Shown here piece by piece: positions 48,842-49,383 of a stretch of DNA of 64,000 nucleotides (the first letter of the stretch is position 1; each line of letters begins with the position of its first letter). The notes under the pieces are model-generated. The model saw only the letters and a list, made by a program, of their open reading frames with translations, had not been told where the DNA came from and ran no database searches. Made by a program: the position numbers and the translations under genes. Source of the DNA: Batrachochytrium dendrobatidis JAM81 (Eukaryota; Chytridiomycota; Chytridiomycetes; Rhizophydiales); contig NW_006281099.1 of NCBI RefSeq assembly GCF_000203795.2, forward strand, positions 608,690 to 672,689, given 5' to 3'.

Positions 48842-49383
48842 CGGTCGGGTTCGCGTAACTTGAAACCATTTATGTTGGCAGTAAATCGTATCGATTTTGC
48901 TTTGGAATAAGCAATTGTTTACAAAGTATTAATTCTGTAAACGATTGTAACCAGTTTATGAGGTTGAACTGATTATTTCACGTTTGGTTACTAAGTTCAA
49001 GACTGGATATTGCTTTCATCTGTTCCAATGTTAAAACAACTCTATACAAACTTGTCTTGTATCCTGATCAAATACGTTTGCTTACCAACTCACGACAACA
49101 TCATATGTCTCAGTAATGCAATTGCTGTTTTTATGCCAATCACCAATGTTTGGTTTGTAAGGAAAAGGGGTTGAATATTGAGCATGAGATTTACTGCAAC
49201 GATGATGTGAATGCTGCTTTGAACATTTGTCCAGTTTATGCAAAAATAAGCAGACAATATTGTCAAAAAATCAGGACAATATTGTCCAGTACACTCGATA
49301 GAAATCAACATTCATGATTTCATGACACTGGCTGTTTATTATGTAGACTTTTGTTTGGTTTCCATGTTACATGAATACGGCAG
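48842..49383 (+). mobile_element. TIR element copy 10, best RuvC-III remnant
   Basis: Flanked by TA. Left end TA|CGGTCGGGTTCGCGTAACTT, right end CATGTTACATGAATACGGCAG|TA. 542 bp, between the ABCC and kinesin genes. From 49105 one open frame reads CNCCFYANHQCLVCKEKG, then EHEIYCNDDVNAALNIC and PVYAKISRQ (to about 49265). NDDVNAALNI is the RuvC-III motif of TnpB/Fanzor proteins (usually N/D-R-D-V-N-A-A-x-N-I). Confidence 0.9.

What the first reader, a model, noticed from the sequence alone, without database searches (positions are those of the whole stretch)
48842..49383. TIR elements carry the C-terminus of a Fanzor/TnpB-like RNA-guided nuclease
Seen: copy 10 (49105-49265) reads, in one frame, Cys knuckles and CNDDVNAALNI. 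Copy 7 reads CNYC...CGIC then R-D-I-N, and copy 5 reads CNYC...CGIC-WNRDVN across one frameshift. Known: TnpB and eukaryotic Fanzor proteins end in a four-Cys zinc ribbon followed by the RuvC-III motif [DN]RDVNAAxNI, and a chytrid (Spizellomyces) Fanzor is an established RNA-guided DNA endonuclease. Inference: the repeat family is the non-autonomous or decayed progeny of a Fanzor-carrying transposon. A full-length copy may exist elsewhere in this genome.
Basis: partly seen in the sequence, partly recalled or inferred. Interest (0 to 1): 0.88.

Follow-up and report, generated by a model that had tools for sequence, protein, structure and literature searches.

The report
Dead mariner-Fanzor transposon family in fungus
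The window is littered with worn-out short jumping-gene copies that still hold the decayed tail of a Fanzor-type (TnpB-like) nuclease gene; they appear to descend from a mariner-type transposon that carried a Fanzor, a known kind of element in a new and very numerous family.

Summary
48842-49383 is one of 14 stretches of a TIR repeat family in the window (7.9% of its bases); about 1,800 terminal-repeat matches lie in the 23.5-Mb genome (reversed pattern: 1). All 5 genome-wide matches to the TnpB profile PF07282 lie in family members. A profile of eight decayed reads led to relatives with PF07282 and then to a Gonapodya prolifera protein. Full-length relatives carry a relocated RuvC-II Glu (E-x6-CxxC) and DPN.

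Longer, decayed copies elsewhere pair Fanzor pieces divergently with a Tc1/mariner DDE_3 transposase. 18 of 26 DDE_3 matches have a divergent Fanzor match within 2 kb (0.47 expected), but 15 of the 18 look like one amplified repeat. So the window elements are best read as decayed, internally deleted MITEs of a mariner-Fanzor transposon. No intact Fanzor was found. A right-end guide RNA, as in Spizellomyces ghost loci, fits by position but got no support from covariation. New member of a known kind.

The parts
48842..49383 (+). Decayed non-autonomous TIR element (the finding), oriented so that the Fanzor remnant reads on +
   Evidence: nhmmer match to model positions 3-597, E 7.1e-77; K2P 0.38 to the family consensus
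48840..48841 (.). TA on the left flank (target-site duplication type)
   Evidence: sequence; 78 left ends: T 83%, T 82%, A 85% just outside CAG
49384..49385 (.). TA on the right flank
   Evidence: sequence; 84 right ends show the same pattern on the other strand
48842..48867 (+). Left TIR, strongly mutated (6 mismatches in 21)
49358..49383 (-). Right TIR (3 mismatches in 21)
49072..49239 (+). Remnant of the Fanzor C-terminus: first Cys pair and NDDVNAALNI, second Cys pair deleted; matches P0002 residues 337-401
   Evidence: tblastn E 8.3e-4 within the window; as-is read; alignment
49292..49383 (+). Segment from about the former stop codon to the right end; occupies the position of the omega-RNA in Spizellomyces Fanzor loci. 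RNA function not shown
   Evidence: position compared with PMC10432273 passages; no covariation in the family
33828..34404 (+). Family member; Fanzor remnant 34100-34332
19091..19674 (-). Family member; Fanzor remnant 19343-19235
47491..47988 (-). Family member; only a weak Fanzor remnant (47669-47613, E 6.6)
39752..40171 (-). Family member; Fanzor remnant 40102-39926 (E 0.16), second Cys pair in register (KCQGC)
13985..14376 (+). Family member; Fanzor remnant 14160-14246 (E 0.64)
57693..58151 (+). Family member, divergent subfamily; 98.4% identical to 61302-61714 with sharp borders; Fanzor remnant 57925-57978 (E 0.053)
61302..61714 (-). Family member, divergent subfamily; Fanzor remnant 61527-61453 (E 0.016)
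11467..11802 (+). Partial family member; possible transposase remnant 11661-11506 on - (tblastn E 1.3, weak)
27417..27803 (-). Partial family member
18351..18622 (-). Partial family member
8093..8308 (+). Partial family member
19995..20108 (-). Fragment of a family member
   Evidence: nhmmer E 2.5e-7
62962..63028 (-). Possible fragment of a family member
   Evidence: nhmmer E 3.2e-4, weak

Best explanation
The element at 48842-49383 and its neighbours are decayed, internally deleted descendants (MITEs) of a Tc1/mariner-type DNA transposon. The parent carried two divergent genes between TIRs that begin CAGCCGTATTCACGTAAAATGG and sit on TA: a DDE_3 transposase whose end faces one TIR, and a Fanzor-type RNA-guided nuclease whose zinc ribbon and RuvC-III end face the other. 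Internal deletion left mainly the two outer regions. Such ends-only copies were multiplied in trans by the transposase (inferred from TIRs, TA sites and copy number) and have since drifted without visible constraint. By analogy with other Fanzors the ancestral nuclease would have used a right-end guide RNA to cut at the transposon's empty site (inferred, not tested). No intact nuclease was found in this genome.
For: 1) TIR pattern: 890+910 matches genome-wide at <=3 mismatches, control 1+0; TA at most of 78 left and 84 right ends. 2) 5 of 5 PF07282 matches in the genome lie in family members. 3) One decayed read: PF07282 6.8e-5, guided_TnpB 0.003. A profile of 8 reads: P0001 3.1e-22 and P0002 2.4e-17 in 5.8 billion sequences. 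4) P0002 passes the PF07282 cut-off and has 101 matches in the genome. 5) Long copies: L061 has MITE-left, Fanzor pieces, MITE-right and a mutated right TIR; L064 has the left TIR, transposase and Fanzor pieces. 6) DDE_3 over its cut-off in L061 and L065, spacing of the two aspartates 39. 18 of 26 DDE_3 matches have a divergent Fanzor match within 2 kb, 0.47 expected. Transposase pieces also inside six other members. 7) Full-length relatives have the Bao-Jurka motif and E-x6-CxxC.
Against: Single decayed reads score below the curated cut-offs, and the best PDB matches (TnpB-like L79, ISDra2 TnpB) are at E 1.6-6.6. No copy was recovered with both TIRs and both whole genes: L061 has a right TIR with 8 mismatches in 22 and a left border seen only by the profile; in L064 the right end is not recognised; the two are 96% alike over 1.5 kb, so not independent. 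15 of the 18 transposase-Fanzor pairs look like copies of one amplified repeat. L061's transposase piece is only the C-terminal part. 8 of 26 DDE_3 matches have no Fanzor match nearby. The transposase tail is weak in window copies (E 1.3 at best inside a member; the best window match, E 0.26, lies outside). SpuFz1 was not hit in the PDB by P0002 or by the profile A4, and the AlphaFold model failed (pLDDT 34).
Confidence: 0.88

Rival explanations
1. The MITEs are working ghost omega-RNA loci: the segment from the old stop codon to the right end is transcribed with the flanking DNA as guide and serves a Fanzor supplied in trans.
For: Similar architecture and size class as the 134 ghost Spu-1 loci of Spizellomyces (about 550 nt, 30-nt IRs, omega-RNA region at the right end; passages). 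The consensus right end can fold into a long hairpin, MFE -21.2.
Against: No intact Fanzor found (0 of 5 PF07282 matches over the cut-off; the long copies L061 and L064 have stops or frameshifts). Hairpin z only -1.45, weaker than the left end of the element (-2.49); paired fraction equals shuffles (0.756 vs 0.755) and double changes 58 vs 51.7+-5.3. RNAalifold finds no common structure there, nor in any control region. The segment inside the TIR is no better conserved than the rest (0.76-0.78).
Confidence: 0.08
2. The nuclease belongs to Fanzor2 or a captured Fanzor2 (Fanzor2*) rather than Fanzor1.
For: P0048 is short for a Fanzor1 (449 aa against 633 aa for SPu-1-1p); captured Fanzor2s in TIR transposons exist (passages); no phylogeny was built; SpuFz1 was not hit.
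Against: TDG (P0049, P0050) or TNG (P0002, P0048) where the Fanzor1 WED motif might sit, and DPN as in SpuFz1 D383/N385.
Confidence: 0.12
3. The TIR family is a mariner MITE family that only picked up a Fanzor tail by chance capture; the Fanzor was never a working gene of the mobile parent.
For: No copy with two intact TIRs and two whole genes was recovered.
Against: Two long copies hold Fanzor pieces spanning residues about 41-407 next to the transposase; the same divergent pair occurs in the amplified repeat; a metagenome protein and a Gonapodya protein are long uninterrupted relatives.
Confidence: 0.06
4. Chance resemblance of a zinc-ribbon-like reading frame, or a bacterial TnpB contaminant.
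For: Single-copy scores are below the curated cut-offs, and several single reads hit nothing relevant.
Against: 5 of 5 genome-wide profile matches in one repeat family; nine of nine P0002 matches in the window at E<=1 in family members; copies spread over many contigs; nearest named long relative is a fungus.
Confidence: 0.01

Closest known systems
Fanzor1 in Tc1/mariner elements (Bao & Jurka 2013, PMC3627910; passages read)
   Same: Fanzor/TnpB C-terminal motif, TIRs, TA target sites, and a mariner-type transposase in some members
   Different: The 2013 table lists 3 Fanzor1 families in Spizellomyces, and Batrachochytrium does not occur in the text. Here the transposase is divergent to the Fanzor, and the family is dominated by decayed MITEs
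SPu-1 and ghost Spu-1 elements of Spizellomyces punctatus (Saito et al. 2023, PMC10432273; passages read)
   Same: Fungal host, TIR element, Fanzor-less copies of about 550 nt, right end kept
   Different: 134 ghosts and 42 loci with full-length (19) or partial genes there; about 1,800 terminal-repeat matches and no intact gene found here. No transposase was found within the Spu-1 IRs, whereas here a DDE_3 transposase is linked. Ghosts are described there as lacking the Fz ORF; here the ORF tail is still readable in pieces
Gonapodya prolifera M427DRAFT_48926 (P0048, 449 aa)
   Same: 44% identical to P0002 over 99% of it; same motifs
   Different: A protein prediction from another fungus; its transposon context was not seen
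ISDra2 TnpB / TnpB-like protein L79
   Same: Zinc ribbon and RDxNAALNI align in register; profile comparison 97% probability, E 5.3e-11 over 67 C-terminal columns with a set of 7 TnpBs
   Different: Homology seen at the C-terminus only; in P0002 and relatives the canonical RuvC-II position (judged by eye) has G or S and a Glu sits before the zinc ribbon

Membership tests
TnpB/Fanzor superfamily | C4 zinc ribbon followed by RD (PF07282) | tested here: met
   P0002 36.6 bits over the 26.3 cut-off; a single decayed read is below it (23.4 bits); 5 of 5 genome matches lie in the family, none over the cut-off
TnpB/Fanzor superfamily | D-X(125,275)-[TS][TS]-X-X-C4 zinc finger-X(5,50)-RD | tested here: met
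   Regular expression true in P0002, P0047, P0048 and P0050, 4 of the 8 proteins. In P0002, P0048 and P0050 the DPN aspartate itself fits the spacing (about 207-229); P0047 lacks DPN, so its match rests on another D. The other 4 are fragments. Not testable on the window copies, which hold only the end
Fanzor (E_alt clade) | Alternative RuvC-II Glu 6 residues before the first CxxC | tested here: met
   E-x6-CxxC before the first Cys pair in 6 of the 8 proteins (P0002, P0047, P0048, P0050, P0006, P0003; P0001 has CNCY, P0049 lacks the region). The short pattern also matches by coincidence before the second pair in P0001 and P0003. Canonical position G/S in the 4 inspected by eye. In the DNA consensus of the MITEs this Glu codon is not kept
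Fanzor (E_alt clade) | DPG at RuvC-I | tested here: not met
   P0002, P0048, P0049 and P0050 read DPN; SpuFz1 has D383 and N385 as metal ligands (passage), so an Asn at this place is compatible with a proven Fanzor1
Fanzor1 | TDG motif in the WED domain | tested here: inconclusive
   TDG in P0049 and P0050, TNG in P0002 and P0048; no usable structure to place it (pLDDT 34)
Fanzor1 | Phylogenetic placement with Fanzor1 | not tested
   No reference set of full-length Fanzor1/Fanzor2 sequences was obtained
Fanzor1 | RNA-guided DNA cleavage | not testable with these tools
   Needs biochemistry; window copies cannot encode a protein
Tc1/mariner transposon | DDE_3 transposase | tested here: met
   L061 36.5 bits and L065 32.6 bits over the 28.6 cut-off; C-terminal part only; spacing of the two aspartates 39. 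No PDB match at E<=1
Tc1/mariner transposon | TA target-site duplication | tested here: met
   TA adjoins most of 78 left and 84 right ends (T 82%, A 85-86%), within T-TA / TA-A; no empty site was available to prove duplication
Ghost Spu-1 type omega-RNA locus | Conserved, structured, expressed right-end RNA | tested here: inconclusive
   Position fits; conservation, covariation and fold gave no support; expression not testable here

The most novel reading that the evidence does not exclude
This fungus carries on the order of a thousand or more ghost right ends, each next to its own genomic flank. With a Fanzor supplied by an unassembled or strain-specific copy, they would form a very large natural pool of omega-RNA guides. 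The 98.4% identical pair at 57.7 and 61.3 kb would then mean that the system moved not long ago.
Probability: 0.06. Interest if true: 0.75.

Novelty: new member of a known kind. Interest (0 to 1): 0.42.

Why it matters
It adds a fungal Fanzor family with a linked transposase, a partner that was not found within the IRs of the Spizellomyces Spu-1 elements (passage). It shows a Fanzor-carrying mariner ending as a massive MITE family that keeps the two outer regions. It also gives relatives (Gonapodya P0048; metagenome P0002 and P0050) that could be tested as compact (about 430-490 aa) Fanzors.

Tried and rejected
OrfB_IS605 (PF01385): 0 matches in the genome. PF03184 transposase: 0 matches. Direct Pfam, NCBIfam and PDB scans of several single reads gave nothing relevant; the L001 read gave the first hits. 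Guide-RNA reading: tested by conservation, RNAalifold and a pair-shuffle test, no support; RNAalifold gave no structure in any region, so that test had little power. Rfam over 46900-49500: one match below its gathering score, outside the element. TAM-like asymmetry of flanks: both ends look alike (T at -3 in 83% at each end), so nothing beyond a TTAA-like target preference. Structure of P0048 with 6 sequences: mean pLDDT 34.1, not used, no fold search made. PDB search with the profile A4: no Fanzor or TnpB among 3 weak matches. The script printed nothing and was not used. Literature: Fanzor+Batrachochytrium 0 papers, Fanzor+chytrid 1 paper; other listings. Passages only were read, in five papers (PMC10432273, PMC3627910, PMC10711439, PMC11423790, PMC9926174). 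The library holds open-licence papers only, so absence there is not absence from print.

Full report
What was checked. The finding's element is exactly where stated. Window 48842-49383 is bounded by TA on both sides and by TIRs with 6 and 3 mismatches to CGTATTCACGTAAAATGGAAC. The stated protein reads are present, including the stop before CNCC in the 49-kb copy, the TAG stop in the 34-kb copy and the one frameshift in the 19-kb copy. One correction: the second Cys pairs are not the ribbon's own. In the DNA alignment the CGIC of the 34- and 19-kb copies is the last Cys of the ribbon followed by G, I and a Cys codon (TGC) where L060 has Tyr (TAC); in the 49-kb copy the true second pair is deleted and CLVC lies elsewhere. 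The pair is in register in the 40-kb window copy and in L001, L031, L035, L036 and L057.

The repeat family. An alignment of 30 copies gave a core of about 600 bp. A DNA profile made from it finds 14 stretches in the window, 7.9% of its bases, and none in a shuffled window. Genome-wide the TIR pattern with up to 3 mismatches occurs 890 times forward and 910 times reverse; the reversed pattern occurs once. In the window the same pattern gives 14 matches, in 11 of the 14 stretches, so the genome may hold on the order of 1,800 copies or fragments; this is an extrapolation, and the window is denser (219 matches per Mb) than the genome mean (77 per Mb). In 78 left and 84 right ends the flanks mostly read T-TA next to CAGCCG on both sides, which fits insertion at TA in a TTAA-like context. 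Among 75 hits with at least 250 aligned bases the median K2P to the consensus is 0.26 (0.20 to 0.47), transitions over transversions 2.0: old and drifting. One pair in the window, 57721-58145 and 61731-61307, is 98.4% identical with sharp borders, so a divergent subfamily moved or was copied more recently.

It is a TnpB/Fanzor remnant. PF07282 has 5 matches in the whole genome at E<=10 (5 of 5 candidates scored), none over the cut-off, and all 5 lie in members of this family. One decayed read (L001, X at its stop) matches PF07282 at 6.8e-5 (23.4 bits, cut-off 26.3) and guided_TnpB at 0.003; in the PDB its three matches are TnpB-like L79 and ISDra2 TnpB at E 1.6 to 6.6, with RDxNAALNI in register. 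Other single reads gave nothing relevant or weak hits. A profile of eight as-is reads found P0001 (3.1e-22), P0002 (2.4e-17), P0003, P0005 and P0006 with PF07282, P0004 without it, and the Tetrabaena protein P0007 (7e-5). P0002 (426 aa, metagenome) led to Gonapodya prolifera M427DRAFT_48926, P0048, 44% identical over 99% of P0002; Gonapodya is in chytridiomyceta.

Fanzor marks. P0002, P0047, P0048 and P0050 match the Bao-Jurka motif, in P0047 with another D than the missing RuvC-I one. Six of eight relatives have E-x6-CxxC, the alternative RuvC-II glutamate that Yoon et al. use to mark Fanzors and a narrow TnpB clade (passages), and the canonical position, judged by eye, holds G or S in the four inspected. 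RuvC-I reads DPN, not the DPG of Yoon et al.; SpuFz1 uses D383 and N385 as metal ligands (passage). P0049 and P0050 have TDG and P0002 and P0048 have TNG where a Fanzor1 TDG might fit; the placement is by sequence only. Profile comparison with seven TnpBs gives 97% probability, E 5.3e-11, over the C-terminal 67 columns only. SpuFz1 itself was not found by sequence and the AlphaFold model was unusable. Fanzor1 is therefore likely but not proven.

The parent. With P0002 the genome gives 101 matches (98 of 255 candidates scored). L061 (C1:985700-988700) holds the MITE left half at 538-1070, Fanzor pieces from 1066 to about 2065, and the MITE right half at 1861-2197, with several stops and frameshifts, a right TIR with 8 mismatches in 22, and a left border seen only by the profile. 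L064 (C15:321500-324300) is 96% identical over 1.5 kb, has the left TIR (3 mismatches) but no recognised right end. In both, a transposase piece runs the opposite way to the Fanzor and ends towards the left side; the L061 piece scores 36.5 bits for DDE_3 over a cut-off of 28.6, and the spacing between two aspartates is 39. DDE_3 has 26 matches in the genome, and 18 of the 26 have a divergent Fanzor match within 2 kb, 0.47 expected; 8 have none. Fifteen of those 18 involve the first 50-59 residues of P0002 at a similar distance and look like one amplified repeat, so the independent cases are few: C1 and C15 (themselves near-identical), C32:981.8 kb and the repeat. Six other family members (L021, L030, L042, L043, L051, L058) also hold transposase pieces. 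So the parent is best read as a Tc1/mariner-type transposon with divergent transposase and Fanzor, and the common ~600-bp element as an internal deletion that keeps both outer regions.

Is anything alive? No Fanzor match was over the PF07282 cut-off, and the long copies L061 and L064 are broken. Two matches lie in 195-aa open stretches (C1:857948 and C32:419794, residues 243-343); in L062 the coding continues in a shifted frame and nothing matches P0002 in the 997 bases upstream. Introns, unscored candidates and unassembled sequence limit this statement.

Guide RNA. In Spizellomyces, ghost loci of about 550 nt keep an omega-RNA at the right end (passages). Here the matching segment (stop codon to right TIR) shows no extra conservation outside the TIR (0.76-0.78), RNAalifold finds no shared structure there or in control regions, and for the consensus hairpin the paired fraction equals shuffles (0.756 vs 0.755+-0.004) while double changes are 58 against 51.7+-5.3, reached in 42 of 300 shuffles. 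This speaks against present function but cannot exclude a past one.

Judgement. This is a new, very numerous family of a known kind: a Fanzor-carrying mariner and its ghost-like MITEs.

Noticed in passing
G000 contigs, e.g. C21:8336-9932 (L063, L065), C1:4422545, C15:2422, C12:5074: 24 of 101 P0002 matches are its first 50-59 residues, each with one TGA inside; 13 of the 24 lie verifiably within 25 kb of a contig end (most other contig lengths were not seen), and 15 of the 24 have a divergent DDE_3 piece within 2 kb: the middle of the parent transposon seems amplified with subtelomeric DNA.
   Followed up: partly
window 57721-58145 and 61307-61731: Inverted pair of family members, 98.4% identical with sharp borders and unshared flanks: the youngest-looking movement or copying seen in the window.
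   Followed up: partly
window 33.8 kb (L002) and C1:1440981-1441481 (L003): The 99% identical elements lie in a longer shared stretch (L002 1256-3501, 94-97% identical, mostly flank on one side), so this is a segmental duplication, not two insertions.
   Followed up: yes
P0048, P0002, P0050: Compact (426-492 aa) fungal or metagenomic Fanzor-like proteins that their sources call 'hypothetical protein' or 'Cas12f1-like TNB domai...', or leave unnamed.
   Followed up: partly
window 35299-35796: Direct duplication of about 250 bp, 87% identical, head to tail.
   Followed up: no
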